From Cytophagales bacterium (GTDB taxonomy: Bacteria; Bacteroidota; Bacteroidia; Cytophagales; Cyclobacteriaceae): 35,398 bases of DNA. Made by a program: the position numbers and the translations under genes. This document shows, piece after piece, positions 17,726 to 29,342 of the stretch; position 1 is the first letter of the stretch, and each line of letters opens with the position of its first letter. The notes beneath the pieces are model-generated. The model was not told the origin of the DNA. It saw nothing but the letters and a program-made list of their open reading frames with translations, and did not search any database. The stretch lies in contig JAKSDO010000235.1 in the NCBI GenBank assembly GCA_022360055.1, positions 1 to 35,398 on the forward strand, written 5' to 3'.

Positions 17726-19144
17726 CTAAGTTGGTATTTCAGCTCCTCCCAGCGCAAATATCAAACCCGCCTGTGCCTTTTGGTATTTCCCGAGAAGCTC
17801 AATGAGTTTTACTTCCGCATTGATCAGGCCTGTTTCCCGGCTGTTCACGATAAATAAGGAGCTTTCCCCCTCTTCGAATTTTCTTTTCTCACCATTAAGT
17901 AATATCTGATAGTTATTTACAGCGTCTTTGAATAATTCGATCTGGTCGAAGAGATTATTGATTTCCATTTCATATGCTTTGATCTTGTTTTTTATGTTAA
18001 GGCTTTCCTGCTGTCGATCCAGGTCTGTCTGATTCATTTTGATTTTAGTCAGTTGCAAATCGCCCCGTCCTTTTCTCAGCAAAATCGGCATGCTAAACTC
18101 GAACCCCCATTTATAATCATTGGTACTGTAGTTTTCAAAAGGATTGCCCGCCACAGGTTGATTGAGCAAATTGTAATTAATATCAAACCGAGGTTTTACC
18201 TTTTCAGCTTTCATTTTTCTTTCAAAATTCAGATTTTCCAGCTTGTTGTAATACAATTGCAACTTGGGATGAGTGCGGTCTATGCCCGATAGGATAGAGG
18301 CTATTAATGCTTCATCGACAGGATTTTCGACGGTGACGTCCTCGTGCTCAATCGGTTTGGAATTATCAGAGAGTTTCAAGGGTTCCAAATCGGGAGACCA
18401 TAAATAATTGCTCGCTTCAAATTTTGCCTGTTGCATTTTTATAGCGGCTTCATTTCTGCTCAATTGCCTGTTCTGGACCAATATGTAAGCCTCTAAGGTG
18501 TCTATGGCCGGAACATCTCCCTGAATGTAACTTTCCTTTACAGCCCGGAGCCTGAATTCCGCCAGAGAAACGGATTCATCGAAAATCTCATAGATGTTCC
18601 AGGCGCTATACCAGTCCCAGTAAGCCTTTGTGGCATCAAATATCAGATTATTTAGCAATAGGATCCGCTCAAGTTCGGTCGCTTTCTCAAATACCTCAGC
18701 TTGTCTTACCGCCTGCCTCCGATCATCAAATAATAATCCCTTTCCCAATGGCACGGCGATGCCGGCATAAGCCAGTCCGTTTGCCGGTAATTGATTTTCC
18801 GGATTTAGAAATACACCGCTGGTATTATCGTATCCGGCCTTCAGCTCCAGTCCAAGAGGAGTTGGCACGGTCAGTGTATTGGAATTTATCTGGTAATAGT
18901 TTTTGCTGTCAAATTGTTTTTGATTGTAGTCAGATTTGATGACAGGATCAAAATTCCCCCTGGCTTTGCGAAGGTTTGCATCTCCGGATTCGATGAGCAA
19001 TTCTGCCTGTTTGCCCGCGGGATGATAGGCCCTGACCATATGCATAAATGCTTCAAAACTGACATACGAGGAGTCCGGTTGCCCAAAGCCATGTTGAGGA
19101 ATTGCCAGGATTGAAACAAATAGTAATCGCATTCCAAATTTCAT
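17726..19144 (-). CDS. TolC-family outer membrane efflux protein
   Basis: 472 residues with a signal peptide (LLFVSILAIPQHGFGQ). The long helical hairpins with two repeated halves are typical of the TolC/OEP fold: YVSFEAFMHMVRAYHPAGKQ near the start, NYLLNQPVAG and FSMPILLRKGRGDLQL in the second half, and a final ELLGKYQKAQAGLIFALG helix. It would form the trimeric outer-membrane exit duct for the HlyD-type adaptor and ABC exporter encoded just upstream. Its ATG overlaps the HlyD stop by 4 bases (ATGA), indicating coupled translation. No lipobox is seen. Confidence 0.9.
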   Translation of the reverse strand: MKFGMRLLFVSILAIPQHGFGQPDSSYVSFEAFMHMVRAYHPAGKQAELLIESGDANLRKARGNFDPVIKSDYNQKQFDSKNYYQINSNTLTVPTPLGLELKAGYDNTSGVFLNPENQLPANGLAYAGIAVPLGKGLLFDDRRQAVRQAEVFEKATELERILLLNNLIFDATKAYWDWYSAWNIYEIFDESVSLAEFRLRAVKESYIQGDVPAIDTLEAYILVQNRQLSRNEAAIKMQQAKFEASNYLWSPDLEPLKLSDNSKPIEHEDVTVENPVDEALIASILSGIDRTHPKLQLYYNKLENLNFERKMKAEKVKPRFDINYNLLNQPVAGNPFENYSTNDYKWGFEFSMPILLRKGRGDLQLTKIKMNQTDLDRQQESLNIKNKIKAYEMEINNLFDQIELFKDAVNNYQILLNGEKRKFEEGESSLFIVNSRETGLINAEVKLIELLGKYQKAQAGLIFALGGAEIPT

Positions 19145-20496
19145 TTTTCAGCTTTGTTTGATGCTACCTGGCTGTCCGTTTGGTAATAATCCGGCGGAAA
19201 TCCATTCAACTGACGCCATAACTCATACCATATCGGCACATCACAGAGCAGGGCAAATCCGTTGGCCCCCGACCCGATCCGTATGGCTTCCGGCCAAGGT
19301 GTATTGGTATCGTCCGGGGCAACCAGGATGCGGTATTTTGAATCCTTGCTTGTGAAATTATCGATGGCCACGATCTTGCCGCCAAAAGTACCATAGGAAA
19401 CATTTGGCCATCCGGAAAATATAATCGCAGGCCATCCGTCAAACATAAAACGAACTTCCTGGCCTTTTTTCAACAATGGTAAATCCATAGGTTTTACGTA
19501 CATTTCTACTGCCAGGTCATATTTGGCTGGCATAATGCTTACGATGGAGGCACCTTCTTTTATCGTTTCACCAATACCCGTTTGAATGGCTTGTGTGATG
19601 TAACCGTTTTGTGGCGCCAAAATATAGTACAAACCAATCCTCACGGAATAATTCATATACTGATTTTGCAGTTTGGTGATCTCTACATTCGCATTGTACG
19701 AATTTGATAATGCCGAGAACCTTTCGGAATTGGCCTTGGCCTGTTTATCCCGGTATTCATTTTTTATGGCAGACAGTTCAAGTTTGGCATTGATAAGTTC
19801 ATTTTTGCTGCTGAGTAATTTGCTTTCGTATCCAATCAATTTTGCCTGGCTTTCCTGCAACTTCAACATTCTGCTCTCCAGGTCGGTAAGAGATTTTAAT
19901 CCTTCGTCATATAGTTCGCGCATACGTTCCTGCTGTCGTTGGGCAATGCTGAAATTTGTTTTGGCCGCTTCAAACTCGATGCTGTCGGCAGTAACTTTGA
20001 GCTTTGACTGGATAAGCTTATTTCGAGCCTGCTCCATTTTGAGTTCCTGCATTTCTTTCAATGCGCCGATTTGATTTTCCAGCGCCTTTACTTTTTCATC
20101 ATAAGATTTCTGAGTGAGCTCTTTGGCCTGGATCTGCTGATTGGTTCGGTCCAGCAGATTGGGATCGAAATAATCATCTTTTATTTCTGAAATATATAAG
20201 ATGGTGTCTCCCTTATGTACGAAGTCACCTTCCTTAACAAACCATTGTTCAATTCTCCCGGCAATGATCGAATGTACTGCCTGAGGCCTCTGGTCGGGCT
20301 TCAAGGTCGTTACATAACCGCGGGCGGTGATATTTTGTGTCCAGGGGATGAACAAGCTTATGACGATCAGAATGAGAAATCCAATGAGTATCCTGGCAAG
20401 CGACCTGCTCGAAGTCTTGCTTTCCACCTTCCCGAATGCTTCGTATTTTTTGGTATCAACCTTATCCGATATACTGTTTCCCGATATATTAAGCAT
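19141..20496 (-). CDS. HlyD-family membrane fusion protein
   Basis: 451 residues. A single N-terminal membrane helix (ILIGFLILIVISLFIPW, about 36-52) anchors it in the inner membrane. The lipoyl half-motif follows (IIAGRIEQWFVKEGDFVHKG). A long alpha-helical coiled-coil spans roughly 120-280 and reaches towards the outer-membrane partner. The return lipoyl/beta-barrel part has YYILAPQNGYITQAIQTGIG and EVRFMFDGWPAIIFSGWP. It should bridge the ABC exporter (3 bases upstream) and the TolC protein (4-base overlap), making a type I-like secretion or efflux apparatus. Confidence 0.92.
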   Translation of the reverse strand: MLNISGNSISDKVDTKKYEAFGKVESKTSSRSLARILIGFLILIVISLFIPWTQNITARGYVTTLKPDQRPQAVHSIIAGRIEQWFVKEGDFVHKGDTILYISEIKDDYFDPNLLDRTNQQIQAKELTQKSYDEKVKALENQIGALKEMQELKMEQARNKLIQSKLKVTADSIEFEAAKTNFSIAQRQQERMRELYDEGLKSLTDLESRMLKLQESQAKLIGYESKLLSSKNELINAKLELSAIKNEYRDKQAKANSERFSALSNSYNANVEITKLQNQYMNYSVRIGLYYILAPQNGYITQAIQTGIGETIKEGASIVSIMPAKYDLAVEMYVKPMDLPLLKKGQEVRFMFDGWPAIIFSGWPNVSYGTFGGKIVAIDNFTSKDSKYRILVAPDDTNTPWPEAIRIGSGANGFALLCDVPIWYELWRQLNGFPPDYYQTDSQVASNKAEK

Positions 20497-20499
20497 GGT

Positions 20500-22221
20500 T
20501 TAAGCTATATTTGACTGGTAAAACGTATCTTTATTCCGAAGATTTTTAAATTTGTCATCATTGATGATTTCTCCCTCTTTCATCAAGATCACTTTATCGC
20601 ATTTGGCTGCGATCTCCGACTGATTGGATATGAGTACCAACGTCCATTGATTTTTCTTATCGACCAGAAAATCCACGATCTTGCCTCCCTCCACAGAATC
20701 CATTCTGCTCAGGTGATCCGTTATCAATAGCAGTTTGGATTGACAGGCAATACCTCTTGCCAAAATGATTTTGGTCTTAATGCTGTCGGGAAGTGTTTTC
20801 CCTTCAGGATCAATTATGGTATTAAAACCATCCTTTAGATTTTGAACAAATTCCGAAAGGAATGTCTTTTCTACAACCTGTAAAACCACCTTCATATCTA
20901 TTCCCGGCCTTCCAAGTGAAATATTCTCGTAAAGCGTTCCCTTAAACAGTTTTTCTTCATGCAGGCTGTCACCAATGTACGTGCGGAGGTTTTCAAGATT
21001 TAAGTTCCCGATAGGGATACCGTTATAGTTTAGGCTGCCATCAAAATTTTCGTATAAACCTGCGATCAATTGCATCAAAGTCGATTTGCCCGAGCCGTTA
21101 TATCCGGAAATGCACACCCGGTCGCCGGGTGCAATATCCAGGTTGATGTTTTTGAGAATTTTCTTTTTACCGTCCGGATATGAAAAGGTCAGGTCTCTGA
21201 TTTTTAAGGACATACCTTTATTCTCGTTTCCATTCTGAAGTTTGAGACCATCGTATCTTTCCAGAGGCAAGTCTGTGACATGCCCCATTTTTTCAAGAGC
21301 GGTTAAGACATCGTATATGGTCTCCATGCCAAGAATGAGCTTCTCCACCGAACTTATGGTCAGTAGTATTACAATTTCAGCAGCGACAAACTGACCGAGA
21401 TTTATTTGCTGATTGACTACAAGCAAGCTGCCCATAATTAACAATCCGGCTGCAATGATGACCTTAAAGCCAACCATGTTGATGTATTGCTTTATCAGCA
21501 CCTTGAAATGGTTCTTTCGCGCATCTACGTAATTTGATACCAGTTCATCGGTCTTTTTCATCGGCAACTCGGTGTCGCCGGCAAGTTTGAAGGTCCCCAT
21601 GTTCCGGCCGACTTCCTCAAGCCAGTGGGCGACCTCATATTTGTATTTTGATTCGGCCAGGGATGTTTTTAGCCCCTGAGGACCCGTAAGTCTGAAAATC
21701 AGGTATACAAACAGGATGAGAATCAGACCAAAAATGATAAAAAACGGATGATAGAAGGACAGCAATATCAATCCGAATATGATTTGAAGTGTGGCCGTCG
21801 AGAAATCGATTAATATTTTGGAAAGTCCCTTTTGAACCGAGAGCGTATCGAAGAAACGGTTTACCAGTTCGGGGACGTAGTATTTATAGACCGATTCCAA
21901 TTTTAACCTTGGAATACGATAGGCAAATTCGAAGGATGCCCTTGTAAAGATTCTTTGTTGCAGTCGTTCTGTGATCGTTAATTGGAACACCTGTAATCCT
22001 CCCGTCATGGCAATGCCGATCATAACGAAAACGACCAGAACTGTCCAGGACGTGGAAATCTGACCGCCGGTTATAAGATTTATGATTGCCTGGATGCCCA
22101 GAGGGAGAGAAAGGTTGATCAATCCATTAAAGATGGCGTACAAATACACGTAAAGGATGTCTTTACTCTCCGGTTGCAGCAGTCGGAAAAACCGGCGCAA
22201 TGGTTGGTTTTTATTTTCCAT
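20500..22221 (-). CDS. ABC exporter (fused permease-ATPase) with degenerate nucleotide-binding domain
   Basis: 573 residues. There are six membrane helices in residues 20-300, with no N-terminal C39 peptidase, followed by an ATPase domain at 335-573. Walker A is intact (GYNGSGKSTL, Lys379), and a Walker B aspartate remains in LLLITDH (Asp502). Other key positions differ from active ABC ATPases: the Q-loop glutamine is His421 (IGDSLHEEKLF), the LSGGQ signature reads LPDSI (477-481), the catalytic glutamate is His503, and the switch histidine is Asn533 (LISNQSE). ATP binding is therefore likely, but hydrolysis may be slow or need a partner. The gene starts 1 base after the TetR stop and leads into HlyD and TolC. 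The cargo is unknown. Confidence 0.9.
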   Translation of the reverse strand: MENKNQPLRRFFRLLQPESKDILYVYLYAIFNGLINLSLPLGIQAIINLITGGQISTSWTVLVVFVMIGIAMTGGLQVFQLTITERLQQRIFTRASFEFAYRIPRLKLESVYKYYVPELVNRFFDTLSVQKGLSKILIDFSTATLQIIFGLILLSFYHPFFIIFGLILILFVYLIFRLTGPQGLKTSLAESKYKYEVAHWLEEVGRNMGTFKLAGDTELPMKKTDELVSNYVDARKNHFKVLIKQYINMVGFKVIIAAGLLIMGSLLVVNQQINLGQFVAAEIVILLTISSVEKLILGMETIYDVLTALEKMGHVTDLPLERYDGLKLQNGNENKGMSLKIRDLTFSYPDGKKKILKNINLDIAPGDRVCISGYNGSGKSTLMQLIAGLYENFDGSLNYNGIPIGNLNLENLRTYIGDSLHEEKLFKGTLYENISLGRPGIDMKVVLQVVEKTFLSEFVQNLKDGFNTIIDPEGKTLPDSIKTKIILARGIACQSKLLLITDHLSRMDSVEGGKIVDFLVDKKNQWTLVLISNQSEIAAKCDKVILMKEGEIINDDKFKNLRNKDTFYQSNIA

Positions 22222-22222
22222 T

Positions 22223-22906
22223 TTACCGGTCGGTCTTAATTGTTTTTAATACCATTTCAACCAAAAAACTCCCTAAATCACTTCCTGTCTTGTCAATATC
22301 CGTGAGCCTGGGGAAATGGTTTGCCAGAAAACGCTGATGATTTGAACTGTCAATTATTATAGATGCCAAGGTATTGGCATACGGATAGTGCGGATTTATT
22401 TCTTTGATGTTTTTAATTAAACGATCATTAATTCGCTTGTAATTCGAGAACAACCCATCTTCGTTTTCAATATCCACCTCTTTGGTTAAAAACGCCTTGT
22501 TTGATTCTTCAATGATTATTTTGTGCAGGGGCTGCAGATTAATATGATCATGTTCAATATTATTTTTAAGCGGATGACAAATGGTTTCGATGGTATTTCC
22601 TAGTTTTTCGACCGGATCTGCAATATTTATTGAGTTGAGTACCATTTCGTATTCCAGCCAGCCCCAGTACCACGAGATCAGGTAAATCAGCAGCTTGTGT
22701 TTATTTTCAAAATATCTGTATATTGTGCTTTCGGTGGTGCTCAATTCAATTGCAAGCTTTTTGAATGTGAATGCCTCCAAACCCATGCTGTGAATCATAT
22801 CGATACTGCGCCGGACAATATTTTTCCCAAGTTCGGAGGATTCCGGATCTTTGAGGTAGATCTTATCATTCACTCTGATCTGTATACTTTTTAATAGTTC
22901 CTGCAT
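22223..22906 (-). CDS. TetR-family transcriptional regulator
   Basis: 227 residues. The N-terminal TetR helix-turn-helix is clear: MIHSMGLEAFTFKKLAIELS followed by TTESTIYRYFENKHKLLIY (about 34-72). The C-terminal ligand/dimerisation domain is specific to this protein. It is the first gene of the minus-strand TetR-ABC-HlyD-TolC row and stops 1 base before the exporter start, so it most likely represses its own export operon and is released by the cargo or a related molecule. Two small dyads lie 68-98 bases upstream. Confidence 0.92.
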   Translation of the reverse strand: MQELLKSIQIRVNDKIYLKDPESSELGKNIVRRSIDMIHSMGLEAFTFKKLAIELSTTESTIYRYFENKHKLLIYLISWYWGWLEYEMVLNSINIADPVEKLGNTIETICHPLKNNIEHDHINLQPLHKIIIEESNKAFLTKEVDIENEDGLFSNYKRINDRLIKNIKEINPHYPYANTLASIIIDSSNHQRFLANHFPRLTDIDKTGSDLGSFLVEMVLKTIKTDR

Positions 22907-23555: not shown

Positions 23556-25499
23556 CTAAACCAGTTTCACATCCGTGATGATTTCGAGTAATGCAGTGCC
23601 TTTATGGGTCAGAATTTGTTCCATAGACCTTTCCAACATGGACTGCTCGGTGACCCGGACCCCGAGGGCCCCGCAGCTATTCGCATATTCGGCAAAATTC
23701 GGATTGCTTAAACTCGTCTGCCACACGTCCCATGCTCCTGCCATTTGTTCTTTGGAGATCTTGCCAAGTTCATTGTTATTCAACAAAACAACTTTAATAT
23801 TCATATTGTATTTTACCGACGTCGTAAGTTCTGCCATATACTGACCAAAGCCACCGTCTCCGGCGACGGCAATTACCTGTCTTTCATTTTTCACTGCGGC
23901 CCAGGCGCCCAGGGCCGCAGGTAAGGCAAAACCGATAGATCCCAGATAGCCACTCATAAGAAAACTATGATTTTTGCTTTCGAAATACCTTCCAAGTGAA
24001 TAGGCATTATTCCCAACATCTACGCATATCACAGCATTTTGTGGAGCTAATCTTGTCAAAGCGTCGAATGCTGCAATCGAACTTAGTCCCTTACCGCGAT
24101 CCTCAAGTAACCTTTTTGCTTTCTCATTGCGCCAGATGACCCATCGATGTTCTACTTCGTCCAATTGATTGGCCGTGGAGTTAAACCCTCTTAATTGTTC
24201 TTTTAAAATTCTAGTTGTTATGGAAATTTCCCCCCAGACCGGGACGTCAACTTTATGGAACTTTCCAAGTGCCATTGGGTCCAGGTCGATTTGGATCGTT
24301 GGCTTTTTGGGCGTAATTCCCGTGTGATTGGAAAAAGAAGCTCCGAAAACCACCAGTAGATCGGCTTCGTTCATAAACCATGACGCAATGGGTGTACCGC
24401 TTCTGCCAAGGACGCCACACCCAAGGGGGTGATCGTCGGGGATCAACCCTTTCCCTTTAAAGGTGGTGCAGACCGGCGCGCCGAGTTGTTCCGCCAGCGA
24501 AACAATATTTTCCATATGAAATCGAGCGCCATGGCCGACAATAAATACCGGCCGACTCGATCCTTTGATCAGGGCAATCGCCCGGGCCAAAGAATCCTCA
24601 GGAGGAGTAATCCGCAAGGAAGATATCCTTCCATCCGGCAATTGTGCTTTTTCTTCTACCGGTTTTATCTGTATTTCGTCCGGAAAGGTAAGATGGGAAA
24701 CCCTTCGATTTAATATGGCATGTTTCATCGCGAGTGTGGCCAGCTCCGCATGCTTACTATCTGCCTGTACGCGATGATTAAAATCTGCTACGGTATGGAA
24801 AGCCTGCACAAGGTCTACCTCCTGAAAATTACCTGTGCCGACGACCTGGGTGGCTACCTGACCCGTCAAAGCCAGGAGCGGAGCGCGATCAACTTTTGCA
24901 TCCCACATACCGGTGTACATGTTGGTGCTTCCGGGCCCGGCAATGCCGAAGCATGCTGCCGGCTTTCCGGTGAGCTTGCCATACGCCGACGCGGCAAAGG
25001 CTCCGGCACCTTCATGGCGAATGCCGATGTAGGTAAGTTTCCCTTTTTCTTCCTGTCTCCGGAAGGCATCCGCCAGACCGAGGTTGGAATGTCCGACCAT
25101 GCCAAAAACCGTATTCAGCCCCCAATTGATCATCGTTTCAACCATAACATCCGATATGTCATACTGATGATCTTCTTCAGGTTCCAATCCGACATAAATC
25201 CCATCACTTCGCTCGTCTGTATTGTATACATCCACACCGTCATCGTAGCCCGGGACTTTACCGGAACATGGATCATAATCCCAGCCATGCCAGGGGCATC
25301 GGAGCAACCCGTTTTCAATGCTCCCTTCACCCAGCGGCCCGCCCTGATGCGGACATTTATTGTCAAGAGCGCAAATTTTCCCGTTGAAATGAGCCAGACA
25401 AATAGTCTTATGGCCGGCTGTAACGGTCATTACCCTTCCTTCGGCAAGCGTATTTTTATTATCGAGCACTTTATGCCAGACGAGATTTTTATGGTTCAT
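23556..25499 (-). CDS. Rieske [2Fe-2S] - thiamine diphosphate enzyme fusion
   Basis: 647 residues from the ATG at 25499, which is 23 bases past the previous stop; an in-frame GTG at 25547 would add 16 residues and overlap that gene. Residues about 5-105 are a Rieske domain with CPHQGG (Cys49, His51) and CPWHGWDY (Cys68, His71). The rest is a complete acetolactate synthase/pyruvate oxidase-type ThDP enzyme. The PYR domain has catalytic Glu163 in IGIRHEGAGAFAASAYGKLT, the central domain starts near SSRPVFIVGHGARFHMENI, and the PP domain has the GDGGFG (from 547) to NNN (574-576) ThDP-Mg motif. It probably decarboxylates or transfers a 2-oxoacid-derived unit, with the Rieske centre passing electrons. 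It is the third gene of a tight operon. Substrate unknown. Confidence 0.88.
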   Translation of the reverse strand: MNHKNLVWHKVLDNKNTLAEGRVMTVTAGHKTICLAHFNGKICALDNKCPHQGGPLGEGSIENGLLRCPWHGWDYDPCSGKVPGYDDGVDVYNTDERSDGIYVGLEPEEDHQYDISDVMVETMINWGLNTVFGMVGHSNLGLADAFRRQEEKGKLTYIGIRHEGAGAFAASAYGKLTGKPAACFGIAGPGSTNMYTGMWDAKVDRAPLLALTGQVATQVVGTGNFQEVDLVQAFHTVADFNHRVQADSKHAELATLAMKHAILNRRVSHLTFPDEIQIKPVEEKAQLPDGRISSLRITPPEDSLARAIALIKGSSRPVFIVGHGARFHMENIVSLAEQLGAPVCTTFKGKGLIPDDHPLGCGVLGRSGTPIASWFMNEADLLVVFGASFSNHTGITPKKPTIQIDLDPMALGKFHKVDVPVWGEISITTRILKEQLRGFNSTANQLDEVEHRWVIWRNEKAKRLLEDRGKGLSSIAAFDALTRLAPQNAVICVDVGNNAYSLGRYFESKNHSFLMSGYLGSIGFALPAALGAWAAVKNERQVIAVAGDGGFGQYMAELTTSVKYNMNIKVVLLNNNELGKISKEQMAGAWDVWQTSLSNPNFAEYANSCGALGVRVTEQSMLERSMEQILTHKGTALLEIITDVKLV

Positions 25500-25522
25500 T
25501 GGATGTGCAATTAAGTTTGAAT

Positions 25523-26320
25523 CTATAAGATCGTTTGCTGATACCACGAAAATGACGAGAGGATGAAATTGTCTATAACAGCGTACGTATCCTCTTGATC
25601 ATACAATATATTCAATGGCAATACCGCCCCTTTCCAGGCGCCTGTTTCCCAGTAGCCATCTTTTAATTTTGGCAGATTTTCCATTTTTAGCCCCCCATCC
25701 AGGGGATAACCGCTCAGATAGAAATAGGGAGCATTTACCATGCTGTCCTGAACAGCCAGCCCAAATCCAACCCCGAGTTTGCCGGAAAGTACCGTATAGA
25801 TACCGGTATCAAAATGATGCGGCCAAATTCTTATTTCCGCAGTGGCATTAAGATGTTCCAGAAGATGCTCGCATGCGGTATTGGCGCTGCTTCTGAATTT
25901 TATCCAGTCATTCAATCCATCTTTGGGAAGTGATCGGTAAATTGCTTCTTTAAACGGGTAATCTTCAATTTCATATTTCAACGGTTTTTTGTACAATTCG
26001 GGGCCATATCCAAATTCCGAAGCTGAAAATTCCAATTCACTTTCCAACTGTCCGTAGGTTTTGCCAGATATGGGGATTTCTTTTTTTACCCTTAACCCGT
26101 GATCGATCCATTGAAATGAAAACCTGTTCAGATCCACGCACAAACTGATATCTCCTTTTTCCGAGTTTATCCAGCGTGTAAAAATGCGCCGTCCAATTGG
26201 GTCAAAGCCCAGGTTGGTATGGCTGTAATCTTCCGTTTCCTCGATCAGGTTTGCCGCGATCTTTGCCAGAACCTGACAGAGAAGATGAAGTTTCCGGTCA
26301 ACATTTACGTATTCCTGCAT
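25523..26320 (-). CDS. DUF5996-like protein of unknown function
   Basis: A 265-residue cytoplasmic protein with no signal or membrane segment. It resembles the DUF5996 family by recall: IRIWPHHFDTGIY (164-175), then APYFYLSGYPLDGG (197-210), WETGAW (224-229) and GAVLP (231-235). The clustered His168, His169 and Asp171 look like a possible metal or substrate site. The N-terminal 160 residues (LNRFSFQWIDHGLRVKKEIP) are less characteristic. Its start overlaps the 3' end of the Rieske-glutamate synthase gene by 23 bases, and its stop lies 23 bases before the next ATG. It must be co-translated with two Rieske-fusion enzymes and is likely a functional part of their pathway. Confidence 0.72.
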   Translation of the reverse strand: MQEYVNVDRKLHLLCQVLAKIAANLIEETEDYSHTNLGFDPIGRRIFTRWINSEKGDISLCVDLNRFSFQWIDHGLRVKKEIPISGKTYGQLESELEFSASEFGYGPELYKKPLKYEIEDYPFKEAIYRSLPKDGLNDWIKFRSSANTACEHLLEHLNATAEIRIWPHHFDTGIYTVLSGKLGVGFGLAVQDSMVNAPYFYLSGYPLDGGLKMENLPKLKDGYWETGAWKGAVLPLNILYDQEDTYAVIDNFILSSFSWYQQTIL

Positions 26321-27914
26321 AGCTGATGTCGGTTAACTGATGTATGTTCCAATCAAATGTGGAAAGGTCTTCCTTGTTGAAATCCTTAAAATTGCCGTGA
26401 CCACAGGATCGAGCAATTACTTTTATAAGATTTGTTGTAGCTTCGAGAAAATTTTTTAGCTGAATTGCGGAGTTCCGGATCATCAACCTTGATCGCAGGT
26501 TTTCTTTCTGCGTCGCTATCCCGACCGGACAGTTATTGGTATGGCAGGCGCGCATTCCCAGACAACCAATGGCCTGCATGGCAGAGTTTGAAACGGCAAT
26601 TGCATCGGCGCCGAGCATTAAGGCCTTGGCAAAGTCTTCTGCAATGCGCAGTCCACCCGTAATAATGAGTGATACATCATCGATATTTAAACGATCGAGA
26701 TGTGCTCTTGCTCTTGCCAATGCGGGGATGGTCGGTACATTTATATTGTTTCTCAAAACCGTCGGCGCGGCTCCCGTTCCACCGCCTCTTCCATCGAGGA
26801 TGATGTAGTCTGCTCCCGCCTCGAGCGCAAAGTCAATGTCCTTTTCAATATGGGATGCGGCAATTTTAAATCCGACAGGTATACCATTGGTTTTTGCCCG
26901 CACTTCATTTGCAAATCCTGAAAAGTCTTTTGCCGTCTTAAGATCTGTGAATGTTGCAGGGCTTATTGCTGCTTGTCCGGGCTTCAGGTTTCTAACTTTA
27001 GCGATCTCTCCCTTGACTTTATCTCCTGGGAGATGACCTCCGGTTCCGGTTTTCGCGCCTTGGCCTCCCTTGAAGTGAAAAGCCTGTGCCTGCTGAACTT
27101 TTTCCCAACTGAAGCCAAACTCGGCAGAAGCTAATTCATAAAAATACGTAGAATTGGCATTTTGCTCATCGGGTAACATCCCACCTTCTCCTGAACAGAT
27201 GCCTGTGCCGGCCATTTCCGCTCCGGTGGCTAAGGCGATTTTTGCTTCCCTGGAAAGCGCCCCGAAACTCATATCCGAAACAAAAATGGGAATGTCCAGT
27301 TTGACCGGTCTTCGGGCCCTGGGTCCAATCATTGTTGTTGTGATCACCTCTTCATGATCCAACAGTGGTTTTCTCCACAATTGCGCAGGTAAAAATTGGA
27401 TGTCGTCCCATTTGGGCAATGTATCTCTATCCACGCCCATGGATTCCGTAAATCCATGGCGGCCGGTTTTTTGTAATCCATGCTTCGACAGCTCACGAAT
27501 ATATCTGGTATACGGCTCCGTTGATTCGGGATGTGTATCGGCATACTGCCCGAGGTATTCGTCCCGATTAAAAGGTTGAGGATGTTTGATCAGAAAATCA
27601 TCTACCTCTTCCTCATCGATCATAATTCGGCCATTTTCAACTTTGGATTCAAATTTATAGAGCGCTTCTGCATTGTTGTACGAACTCACACCGGTATCGT
27701 ACCTGTAGTCCCAGCCATGTACACCACAAATAAGATTCTCTCCATCAACGGTCCCATCGGCCATTAACGCTCCCCTGTGCAAACATCTTCCATATAAAAC
27801 GGAGATGTCTGAATCATAGGCAATAATTACCAAATCGAGATCTTTTACCCGGGCATATGTAGGAATTCGATCTTGCAGGCTTCCTGTATCTAATAATCGG
27901 ATTGGTCTTTTCAT
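26298..27914 (-). CDS. Rieske [2Fe-2S] - FMN glutamate synthase-domain fusion
   Basis: 538 residues. Residues 1-105 form a Rieske domain with Cys44/His46 (RCLHRG) and Cys63/His66 (CGVHGWDY). The C-terminal part is the FMN-binding barrel of glutamate synthase-type enzymes: FVSDMSFGALSREAKIAL, GICSGEGGMLPDE, FKGGQGAKTGTGGHLPG, IILDGRGGGTGAAP, IITGGLRIAEDFAKAL, and the [3Fe-4S] motif Cys451-x5-Cys457-x4-Cys462 (CLGMRACHTNNC). There is no glutaminase domain, so ammonia or another amine donor, or a different flavin reaction, is expected. It is first in a three-gene minus-strand operon. Rieske centre, [3Fe-4S] cluster and FMN in one chain suggest an internal electron relay. Confidence 0.93.
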   Translation of the reverse strand: MKRPIRLLDTGSLQDRIPTYARVKDLDLVIIAYDSDISVLYGRCLHRGALMADGTVDGENLICGVHGWDYRYDTGVSSYNNAEALYKFESKVENGRIMIDEEEVDDFLIKHPQPFNRDEYLGQYADTHPESTEPYTRYIRELSKHGLQKTGRHGFTESMGVDRDTLPKWDDIQFLPAQLWRKPLLDHEEVITTTMIGPRARRPVKLDIPIFVSDMSFGALSREAKIALATGAEMAGTGICSGEGGMLPDEQNANSTYFYELASAEFGFSWEKVQQAQAFHFKGGQGAKTGTGGHLPGDKVKGEIAKVRNLKPGQAAISPATFTDLKTAKDFSGFANEVRAKTNGIPVGFKIAASHIEKDIDFALEAGADYIILDGRGGGTGAAPTVLRNNINVPTIPALARARAHLDRLNIDDVSLIITGGLRIAEDFAKALMLGADAIAVSNSAMQAIGCLGMRACHTNNCPVGIATQKENLRSRLMIRNSAIQLKNFLEATTNLIKVIARSCGHGNFKDFNKEDLSTFDWNIHQLTDISYAGIRKC

Positions 27915-28511
27915 GAATGGTTGTCAGATGTTTATTTACTTATGTTGGGCGAACTTATTCTTCTTGAGCATATCGTTTGGTCGGATCGAATACAAAATTG
28001 AAAATTTCACTGTCTAATTTATCAAATATCAAATGAGATTAAAAATCAAGCCGAATTATTGTGACATTACTAACACAAGTAATGCATACTTTTTAACAGT
28101 TTAAAATAATTTTGATAGATCAACGCAACGAATTGTGATATAAATTTATATAAATATATAATTATTATTAACTTGGCTTTGAATAAGAAAATTGGAATAA
28201 TTGAAAAAGCGCAAGCTGGAATAAGTCGAGCTTGCGCTTTTTTCTTGTAGTTTTGAATGAATTTTTCGGTGATCGATCAACCTCGATTATTCACAATCAA
28301 TCCGGGGAAATTCGGAAATCATCGTCGCGAGATATTAATTTTGAATGCAATGCCTGGAGTTCAGTCCGGATGAAGCAGAATAACAATCCGTATTCGGGAG
28401 ATTCCGGGTTGGATTTATGATAGGCAAGCCGATGTCTGTATGTATTTCTGTGATATCAACACGAAGGGCTCATTGAATTCGGCAGGACATCTATTAAAGC
28501 GATTTGTGCAA
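27915..28511. other. AT-rich spacer upstream of the Rieske operon and the class D beta-lactamase gene
   Basis: About 600 bases that must contain divergent promoters. 28010-28200 is very AT-rich with runs of A and T. The only clear structure is the long hairpin at 28205-28243. A reading frame in line with the beta-lactamase gene extends upstream to an ATG at 28440, but the segment before 28512 lacks signal-peptide character and is more likely leader. Confidence 0.5.
28205..28243. terminator. Long hairpin with A- and T-tracts, no gene in front on the plus strand
   Basis: AAAAGCGCAAGCT (28205-28217) is perfectly complementary to AGCTTGCGCTTTT (28229-28241), with an 11-base loop and a continuing T-run. 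It has the form of a bidirectional intrinsic terminator. No coding gene ends here on either strand: both neighbours point away from it. It could end a small non-coding RNA starting in the AT-rich region to the left or right, or insulate the two divergent transcription units. Confidence 0.65.
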
Positions 28512-29342
28512 ATGAGAATCATTTACCTTTTTATTTTACTATCATTTCTCTATGGTTGCCGGAGTAAAAATACTAAAAGCGAATCCGGAGTCGATTCGAG
28601 GTGGTTGTCTCGGCTAAAACCGGATTCGATAAGGATGGCGTATGAATCAAGAAGTGTAGAGGGATGCTTTATCTTATATGATCTCAGACGGGATACGAGT
28701 ATGATATACAACATCGAACGGGCGCATCAATCGTTTCTGCCTGCCTCGACGTATAAAATTCCGAACTCACTTATTGCGCTGGAATGCAAAGTAGTGAAGG
28801 ACGAGCGTGAAATAATTCATTGGGATAGTACGATGCGACCCGTAGCAATCTGGAATCAAGATCATAACATGGCTACGGGAATAAAATATTCGGTGGTTTG
28901 GTTCTACCAGGAGTTGGCCCGCAGAATAGGAGCGGAGCGCATGCAATCATGGGTAAATCGGATCGAATATGGGAATCGGCAAATCGGAAGAAATATTGAT
29001 GATTTTTGGCTCGAAGGTGAATTGCGCATCTCTCCGGTCCAGCAGATTGAGTTTTTGAAAAAACTGATTGAAAATGACCTTCCTTTTAAGAAAAGGCATA
29101 TTGAGACGGTCAAGACAATATTGATCGAAGATGAAAACGATCATTATGTTTTTCGGGCAAAAACCGGTTGGTCTGTCCACGGAACACCAGTGGGCTGGTA
29201 TGTGGGCTATCTGGAGATAAATGACAACACATATATTTTTGTAAATAACATCGAAATTACAGAAAGCAAAGACGCTAAGGCGAGAAAGGAAATCGTAAGA
29301 GAGATCTTTAAGCATATCTTCGACATCAACTTAAATATATAA
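28512..29342 (+). CDS. Class D (OXA-type) beta-lactamase-like lipoprotein
   Basis: 276 residues from the ATG at 28512, chosen because it begins the signal peptide (MRIIYLFILLSFLYGC) with a lipobox ending at Cys16. All class D landmarks are present in order: S-T-Y-K at 79-82 (nucleophile Ser79, Lys82 expected to be carboxylated), S-V-V at 127-129 (KYSVVWFYQELARRIG), Y-G-N at 153-155, Trp166 in DFWLEGELRISPVQQ (the tryptophan that stabilises the carboxylated lysine in OXA enzymes), and K-T-G at 217-219. Beta-lactam hydrolysis is therefore plausible; a penicillin-sensing role (BlaR-like domain) is unlikely because no membrane sensor is attached. The stop directly abuts the radical SAM gene. Confidence 0.9.
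   Translation: MRIIYLFILLSFLYGCRSKNTKSESGVDSRWLSRLKPDSIRMAYESRSVEGCFILYDLRRDTSMIYNIERAHQSFLPASTYKIPNSLIALECKVVKDEREIIHWDSTMRPVAIWNQDHNMATGIKYSVVWFYQELARRIGAERMQSWVNRIEYGNRQIGRNIDDFWLEGELRISPVQQIEFLKKLIENDLPFKKRHIETVKTILIEDENDHYVFRAKTGWSVHGTPVGWYVGYLEINDNTYIFVNNIEITESKDAKARKEIVREIFKHIFDINLNI

What the first reader, a model, noticed from the sequence alone, without database searches (positions are those of the whole stretch)
23556..27914. Operon joining two Rieske-fusion enzymes through a DUF5996-like protein
Three minus-strand genes overlap or nearly abut: a Rieske-FMN/[3Fe-4S] glutamate synthase-domain fusion, an unknown DUF5996-like protein, and a Rieske-ThDP acetolactate synthase/pyruvate oxidase-type fusion. 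Both Rieske domains keep the C-x-H and C-x-x-H ligands, and both catalytic parts look complete. Two unrelated enzyme classes with the same electron-transfer domain at the same end suggest a shared redox partner and one pathway, perhaps coupling oxidative decarboxylation of a 2-oxoacid to a flavin-dependent amination or oxidation. I know of no described pathway with this set. The proposed chemistry is inference; the architecture is directly visible.
Basis: partly seen in the sequence, partly recalled or inferred. Interest (0 to 1): 0.78.

Follow-up and report, generated by a model that had tools for sequence, protein, structure and literature searches.

The report
Conserved Rieske-fused pyruvate-oxidase-type operon
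Three adjacent genes encode two enzymes that each carry an iron-sulfur "Rieske" domain, plus a small protein of unknown function; relatives of these genes often sit together in other genomes and so probably work together, but what they do is not yet known.

Summary
GLT (Rieske + FMN/[3Fe-4S] glutamate-synthase domain), a distant DUF5996 relative and a Rieske-ThDP enzyme form one minus-strand operon. The linkage recurs: near the 80 Rieske-ThDP genes most like the window's, GLT lies within 10 kb in 45, DUF in 44, both in 29. Of 395 sampled phylum genomes, 11 have the Rieske-ThDP enzyme and 10 of these have GLT; all three are neighbours in only 2. Three haloarchaeal plasmids carry both fusions. 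The ThDP core groups with PoxB, not acetolactate synthase, and lacks PoxB's C-terminal tail. A third Rieske fusion (ferric-reductase-like membrane protein) and a Na+/H+ antiporter are frequent neighbours. A flavodoxin-like FMN protein occurs in 9 of 80 loci, with DUF in all 9 and GLT in none; the 8 of those genomes that were held lack GLT. Best reading: a stress-linked electron route in which a pyruvate-oxidase-type enzyme sends electrons through its Rieske domain to interchangeable flavin partners. Linkage is shown; chemistry is inferred.

The parts
26298..27914 (-). GLT: Rieske-FMN/[3Fe-4S] glutamate-synthase-domain fusion, 538 aa
   Evidence: ORF; Pfam Glu_synthase 302.6 bits and Rieske 37.8 bits
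27690..27887 (-). Rieske domain of GLT (residues 10-75), ligands C44-x-H46 ... C63-x2-H66
26397..27326 (-). Glu_synthase (FMN barrel) domain of GLT, residues 197-506
26526..26564 (-). [3Fe-4S] ligand motif C451-x5-C457-x4-C462
   Evidence: aligned to GltS large-chain structures
25523..26320 (-). distant DUF5996 relative, 265 aa; overlaps the end of GLT by 23 bases
   Evidence: AlphaFold2 mean pLDDT 93.4
23556..25499 (-). Rieske-ThDP, pyruvate-oxidase-type enzyme, 647 aa from the probable ATG (the mechanical ORF starts at GTG 25547, 663 aa)
25254..25472 (-). Rieske domain of the ThDP enzyme, ligands CPH ... CPWH
23580..25157 (-). TPP_enzyme N, M and C domains
   Evidence: RHEG in 80 of 80 and GDG...N[N/S] in 80 of 80 homologues

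Best explanation
The operon encodes part of a soluble, stress-linked electron route. Step 1 (inferred): the Rieske-ThDP protein decarboxylates pyruvate or a close 2-oxoacid as PoxB does, passing electrons from the ThDP adduct to FAD. Step 2 (inferred): with the tail of PoxB missing, electrons leave one at a time through the fused Rieske cluster. Step 3 (inferred): they go to a flavin partner that accepts single electrons and does two-electron chemistry. Here that is GLT, through its own Rieske domain and [3Fe-4S] cluster to FMN; in other genomes it is a flavodoxin-like FMN protein; and a haem-b membrane protein with its own Rieske domain may take electrons where present. The DUF5996-like protein stays when GLT is replaced (9 of 9 such loci), so it is more likely a common accessory or enzyme of the route than a GLT subunit. 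Shown: gene fusion, ligand conservation, recurrent linkage, PoxB kinship of the core, and mutual exclusion of GLT and the flavodoxin-like protein. Not shown: substrate, cofactor content, electron direction, protein contacts.
For: Linkage: GLT within 10 kb of the ThDP gene in 45 of 80 loci, 42 of 45 upstream on the same strand; of 46 loci with full flanks 40 have GLT or DUF, 22 both. Sample of 395 phylum genomes, the window's own included: GLT in 48 overall, in 10 of 11 ThDP-positive and 25 of 28 DUF-positive ones (no correction for kinship). GLT in 20 of the 27 stretches fetched around DUF from other genomes. Same genus and family: L217, L220, L221. Haloarchaeal plasmids: both fusions in 3 records, a Na+/H+ antiporter directly 3' of the ThDP gene in one. 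PoxB kinship 97/91; Glu50 and Glu469 positions kept, tail absent. Rieske motif in 80 of 80 ThDP, 42 of 44 GLT (over 300 aa) and 27 of 27 FRR proteins. FMN_red cluster in 9 of 80 loci: GLT in 0 of 9 (Fisher p 4e-4) and in 0 of the 8 genomes held, DUF in 9 of 9. A relative of it (55.7% identity) lies near the ThDP gene on an actinobacterial plasmid.
Against: In the 11 ThDP-positive sample genomes (G000 included) GLT neighbours the ThDP gene in 5, lies on another contig in 5 and is missing in 1; all three genes are neighbours in 2. DUF and ThDP co-occur in only 5 of 11. GLT is often without the others: 17 of 48 genomes, and 0 of 14 further GLT stretches, chosen because no DUF or ThDP locus had been seen there, show DUF or ThDP. 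The 80 named loci are the ones nearest the window among at least 556 relatives, so their rates lean upward. 18 of 80 have none of GLT, DUF, FRR or U264 nearby. A Lys, invariant in ten aligned proteins, stands where PoxB has Phe465, which I recall as part of its electron path. The tree has long reference branches whose place the tool calls unsure. No PDB match for the DUF fold at E 0.001. Nothing here measures electron transfer.
Confidence: 0.42

Rival explanations
1. Parallel donors: the ThDP enzyme (2-oxoacid), GLT run in the oxidative direction (glutamate or another amino acid) and the flavodoxin-like protein (NAD(P)H) each feed electrons into the Rieske-bearing, ferric-reductase-like membrane protein FRR, which passes them to the periplasmic side.
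For: FRR is a Ferric_reduct-Rieske fusion within 10 kb of the ThDP gene in 27 of 80 loci, followed by the membrane-anchored U264 in 26. The window's genome has U142-FRR-U264 on another contig (L101). MsrQ, a protein with the same kind of haem domain, passes electrons to periplasmic MsrP (PMC5676040, passages).
Against: 53 of 80 loci have no FRR in the held stretch. Amino-acid oxidation by such enzymes is not known to me.
Confidence: 0.22
2. Stress regulon without direct electron transfer: the genes are induced together (redox, thiol, pH or light stress), each enzyme acts alone, and each Rieske domain has its own partner or serves as a redox-sensitive switch.
For: Recurrent neighbour clusters, each named from one or two tested members, are of a stress kind: Na+/H+ antiporter in 37 of 80 loci, CRP-family regulator 16, a 16-locus cluster with YpdA, NAD(P)H-hydrate epimerase 7, EgtD 6, EanB-type rhodanese 4. 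Gene order shuffles freely.
Against: Three different proteins of one neighbourhood carry the same domain, and GLT and the flavodoxin-like protein exclude each other, which suggests a specific shared slot.
Confidence: 0.26
3. Coupled amination as first proposed: oxidative decarboxylation of a 2-oxoacid drives ammonia- or amine-dependent reductive amination by GLT, with DUF5996 as the link.
For: GLT keeps the FMN barrel and [3Fe-4S] ligands, and no amidotransferase domain was found; adjacency as above.
Against: GLT is replaced by an FMN_red protein in genomes without GLT, and DUF is still there; no DUF in the held stretch of 16 of the 45 GLT loci.
Confidence: 0.1

Closest known systems
Pyruvate oxidase, PoxB type (E. 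coli PoxB, PDB 3ey9/3eya)
   Same: Three ThDP domains; best PDB match 239.9 bits; groups with PoxB 97/91; Glu50 and Glu469 positions kept
   Different: N-terminal Rieske domain added, C-terminal tail absent, Lys at the Phe465 position; 388 bits against a cut-off of 742 for NCBIfam PRK08611 pyruvate oxidase
Glutamate synthase large subunit (GltS, PDB 1ea0, 7mfm)
   Same: FMN barrel region and C-x5-C-x4-C cluster motif
   Different: No amidotransferase domain found; Rieske domain at the N-terminus; 119-128 bits to the five GltS chains matched
MsrQ / ferric-reductase-like haem membrane proteins
   Same: FRR has the Ferric_reduct domain and a weak MsrQ match, 47 of 130 bits
   Different: Carries a C-terminal Rieske domain; MsrQ's possible donor is the flavin reductase Fre (PMC5676040, passages)
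EanA/EanB ergothioneine pathway
   Same: A neighbour in some loci: the L106 rhodanese protein matches PDB 6h98/6ktv 'Sulfurtransferase' at 708 bits (the name EanB for these entries is recalled); EgtD cluster in 6 of 80 loci
   Different: A neighbour only, 4-6 of 80 loci; the window's genome has an EgtD-like protein on another contig, 276.5 of 290.9 bits

Membership tests
Pyruvate oxidase (PoxB/POX) | TPP_enzyme N, M and C domains with catalytic Glu and GDG...NN motif | tested here: met
Pyruvate oxidase (PoxB/POX) | Groups with PoxB rather than IlvI, IlvB or Gcl | tested here: met
   97/91 in one tree of 35 rows; long branches, so moderate
Pyruvate oxidase (PoxB/POX) | Passes the curated family cut-off | tested here: not met
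   388 of 742 bits for the best model
Pyruvate oxidase (PoxB/POX) | C-terminal tail beyond the ThDP domain (membrane/quinone part of PoxB, recalled) | tested here: not met
   three Rieske-ThDP proteins aligned
Pyruvate oxidase (PoxB/POX) | Pyruvate oxidation with bound FAD | not testable with these tools
   needs purified protein
Acetolactate synthase | Groups with IlvI/IlvB | tested here: not met
   (one tree, long IlvB and IlvI branches); TIGR00118 293.8 of 538.35 bits
Glutamate synthase (GltS/GltB) | Glu_synthase domain with three-Cys [3Fe-4S] motif | tested here: met
Glutamate synthase (GltS/GltB) | N-terminal amidotransferase domain | tested here: not met
   not among the four Pfam families; the N-terminus is the Rieske domain
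Rieske [2Fe-2S] | C-x-H and C-x2-H ligands | tested here: met
   both window proteins; 80 of 80 ThDP, 42 of 44 GLT, 27 of 27 FRR
Rieske [2Fe-2S] | A bound 2Fe-2S cluster | not testable with these tools
   needs EPR on purified protein
DUF5996 (PF19459) | Passes the gathering score | tested here: not met
   21.2 of 25 bits; 5 of 32 aligned relatives match PF19459 at E 0.01

The most novel reading that the evidence does not exclude
A cytosolic Rieske network not described so far: up to three proteins of one neighbourhood carry Rieske domains as a common one-electron plug (a pyruvate-oxidase-type donor, a glutamate-synthase-type flavoenzyme, a haem-b membrane protein), joining 2-oxoacid oxidation to flavin and membrane chemistry without NAD(P)H or quinone as the first acceptor. 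Bacteroidota and haloarchaea share its two soluble fusions, a flavodoxin-like protein is an alternative module, and the set is wired to cation/proton antiport and low-molecular-weight-thiol defence.
Probability: 0.3. Interest if true: 0.88.

Novelty: new variant of a known kind. Interest (0 to 1): 0.72.

Why it matters
If right, Rieske clusters serve as interchangeable connectors between 2-oxoacid oxidation and flavin enzymes, a use that I do not know from print. The searches brought up no paper recognisable as describing it; of the six papers they returned, one was read in passages and five were seen as listings only. It would give a function to DUF5996 (no paper found), to a pyruvate-oxidase branch called only 'thiamine pyrophosphate-binding protein' in the five plasmid records that carry it, and to a glutamate-synthase branch called 'glutamate synthase-related protein' in three. 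The partnership makes plain, testable predictions in culturable marine bacteria.

Tried and rejected
Acetolactate synthase as identity of the ThDP core: not supported by the tree. DUF5996 as obligatory link: no DUF in the held stretch of 16 of the 45 GLT loci. DUF as a subunit of GLT alone: disfavoured, as DUF is present in 9 of 9 FMN_red loci without GLT; this replaced my earlier guess. A foreign or chimaeric contig: not favoured; the window's PEP carboxylase has its best match in the same genus (G435, 72%) and a same-genus genome has the same three-gene operon (L217). GLT is patchy, though: 11 of 39 relatives, G000 included, four of them partial or weaker matches; of seven stretches fetched from them, the ThDP gene is seen in three, and three of the other four end at or near a contig end.

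Limits of my counts: the script's gene picker keeps the longest ORF where two overlap and lost the known GLT in L187 and L193, so neighbour counts are lower bounds; cluster names rest on one or two tested members each.

Literature: searches returned no paper; some searches returned 1, 4 and 1. Of these I read passages of PMC6037941, which treats Rieske proteins and pyruvate oxidase in other contexts; the other five were seen as listings. From, PMC11767532 and PMC5676040 were read as passages; the other three as listings.
Full report
WHAT IS THERE. Three minus-strand ORFs lie at the stated places: GLT 26298-27914, DUF 25523-26320 and the ThDP protein 23556-25547. Pfam gives Rieske and Glu_synthase for GLT, Rieske and the three TPP_enzyme domains for the ThDP protein, and only a sub-threshold DUF5996 match for the middle protein. 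Both Rieske domains keep C-x-H and C-x2-H, and GLT keeps C-x5-C-x4-C. GLT and DUF overlap by 23 bases. The ThDP start is probably ATG 25499. About 650 bases separate the operon from the TetR, ABC-transporter, HlyD-type and outer-membrane genes downstream; the next gene upstream, a class D beta-lactamase homologue, is divergent.

IS THE LINKAGE REAL? In a sample of 395 genomes of the phylum, the window's own included, DUF relatives occur in 28, Rieske-fused GLT in 48 and the Rieske-fused ThDP enzyme in 11. I set the 11 by alignment from residue 23 or earlier at 59% identity or more; the next matches fall to 33% and begin at residue 120 or later. GLT is found in 25 of 28 DUF-positive and 10 of 11 ThDP-positive genomes (hypergeometric p 3e-23 and 3e-9), DUF in 5 of 11 ThDP-positive ones (p 4e-4); none of these is corrected for kinship. 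GLT lies in the fetched stretch around DUF in 20 of 27 loci from other genomes. Against: of the 11, GLT is a neighbour of the ThDP gene in 5 (G000, G077, G088, G304, G312), on another contig in 5 and missing in 1 (G128, where DUF and ThDP share a 3.9-kb contig); all three genes are neighbours in 2 (G000, G077). GLT also occurs alone: 17 of 48 GLT genomes have neither DUF nor the ThDP enzyme, 12 of them of one family (f18). Fourteen GLT stretches picked because no DUF or ThDP locus had been seen there show neither.

NAMED GENOMES. A scan of the species-genome collection with ten orthologues gave at least 556 relatives, of which the 80 most like the window were kept. Two are titled Chlorobiota and one each Calditrichia, FCB group, Pyrinomonadaceae and Shewanella; the rest carry Bacteroidota names (my reading of the titles). 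In the held stretch, up to 10 kb each side of the ThDP gene: GLT 45 of 80, DUF 44, FRR 27, U264 26. One of the 45 GLT (L182) lacks the Rieske motif and one (L140) is split. GLT and DUF together 29 of 80, either 60 of 80; of the 46 loci with full flanks 22 and 40. GLT is upstream on the same strand in 42 of 45; DUF is less ordered: 25 upstream, 9 downstream, 10 on the other strand. 18 of 80 have none of GLT, DUF, FRR or U264. Close kin: L217 (same genus) has GLT-DUF-ThDP with the same 23-base overlap; L220 and L221 (same family) have GLT-ThDP-antiporter-DUF; the other four stretches fetched show no ThDP gene (L219 has GLT-DUF, L222 GLT-antiporter, L218 GLT, and L223 is a fragment).

THE WIDER SET. 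De novo clustering of all neighbours, each cluster named from one or two tested members: Na+/H+ exchanger in 37 of 80 loci, directly after the ThDP gene in 14 and directly before it in 11 (within 150 bases); DUF2721 21; U142 21; CRP-family regulator 16; a cluster of 16 whose tested member is YpdA (TIGR04018, 491 bits; three longer members were not tested); outer-membrane beta-barrel 13; DUF427 11; YHS 11; FMN_red 9; YjeF_N 7; EgtD 6; and a rhodanese protein of the EanB type 4. U142-FRR-U264 forms its own tight module, with FRR-U264 adjacent in 26 loci; FRR is a ferric-reductase-type haem domain with a C-terminal Rieske domain. The window's genome carries this module on another contig (L101).

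REPLACEMENT OF GLT. None of the 9 loci with FMN_red has GLT (0 of 9 against 44 of 71, L182 not counted; Fisher p 4e-4), while all 9 have DUF. All 36 loci without a Rieske-GLT neighbour were handed to a whole-genome search; 35 genomes were held (L184 was not). 0 of the 8 FMN_red genomes and 13 of the other 27 have a GLT match; 10 of the 13 are full-length with the Rieske part, one is in two pieces and two lack the Rieske part. Assemblies may be incomplete, but 0 of 8 is telling.

BEYOND BACTEROIDOTA. Among 138 plasmid records matched, the best five carry the whole Rieske-ThDP enzyme at 53-60% identity; the next three listed align only from residue 112 on, and 130 were not listed. Three of the four haloarchaeal ones also carry GLT at 56-58% from residue 13 or earlier; the other five GLT matches, of bacteria, begin at residue 123 or later, and the Vibrio one that I looked at shows no ThDP gene nearby. 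GLT lies 1.4 kb from the ThDP gene in L211, 4 kb away in L212 with a Na+/H+ antiporter directly after the ThDP gene, and 17 kb away in L213 with an NAD(P)H-hydrate epimerase near GLT. Haloferax L214 has the epimerase near the ThDP gene and no GLT in its record at this sensitivity. A Mycobacteroides plasmid (L215) has a cation:proton antiporter, the FMN_red relative (55.7% identity) and the ThDP gene. No DUF relative was found on any of these five plasmids. The same partners thus recur in three distant groups; gene transfer may explain the sharing, but not why the same partners stay together.

WHAT THE ENZYMES ARE. In a tree with E. coli PoxB, IlvI, IlvB, Gcl and Oxc (fetched) the Rieske-ThDP cores group with PoxB and related plain enzymes (97/91) as a separate long branch; the tool warns that four reference rows have long branches. 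The PoxB Glu50, Phe112, Gln113 and Glu469 positions are kept, the Phe465 position is Lys, and the protein ends where PoxB's tail begins. GLT is a glutamate-synthase-type FMN enzyme in which no amidotransferase domain was found. The DUF protein has W166, D171, G187, D192, Y199 and Y201 invariant and H168/H169 nearly so in 32 sequences, and a confident model without a solved relative found.

HOW IT MOST LIKELY WORKS. Losing PoxB's tail and gaining a Rieske domain suggests that electrons from 2-oxoacid oxidation leave through the cluster. That GLT and a flavodoxin-like FMN protein exclude each other, with DUF and the ThDP enzyme in place, suggests that they fill one slot, and that the task of that slot is to exchange electrons at an FMN rather than to make glutamate. 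The neighbours (antiporter, hydrate epimerase, bacillithiol- and ergothioneine-type enzymes) suggest use under redox or pH stress. All of this paragraph is inference; direction, substrate and contacts are open.

NOVELTY. Both enzyme cores are known kinds in new fusions. No paper was found for DUF5996, nor one recognisable as describing the combination, in a library that lacks most subscription journals.

Noticed in passing
window 28440-29342 (+): Class D beta-lactamase homologue (NF012161, 291.7 bits against a cut-off of 250), divergent from the operon.
   Followed up: no
window 17726-22906 (-): TetR regulator followed by ABC transporter, HlyD-type and outer-membrane efflux genes; L151, in a MAG titled Cyclobacteriaceae, has a TetR relative at 202 bits in the same stretch as its ThDP gene.
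   Followed up: no
L039 7949-10890: EgtD, DUF5996 relative and EgtB in a row, so DUF5996 also travels with ergothioneine genes; no GLT in that stretch (that genome's GLT is on another contig).
   Followed up: partly
L047 251-5545: EgtD, DUF427, EanB-type rhodanese, DUF5996 relative and GLT in one row.
   Followed up: partly
L172 13550-14341 (U264): Membrane-anchored protein with a conserved CYFGVMKPGxGKxHRSCAxxC-like motif, beside FRR in all 26 loci that have it; no Pfam match for two members and no Foldseek PDB match at E 0.001.
   Followed up: partly
L102 8009-10276 (window's genome): Fatty-acid-desaturase, Rieske and FAD/NAD reductase domains fused in one protein.
   Followed up: no
L052 6866-8053; L213 3358-4332; L214 11065-12003: DUF3179 protein beside GLT or the ThDP gene in a Bacteroidota genome and two haloarchaeal plasmids.
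   Followed up: no
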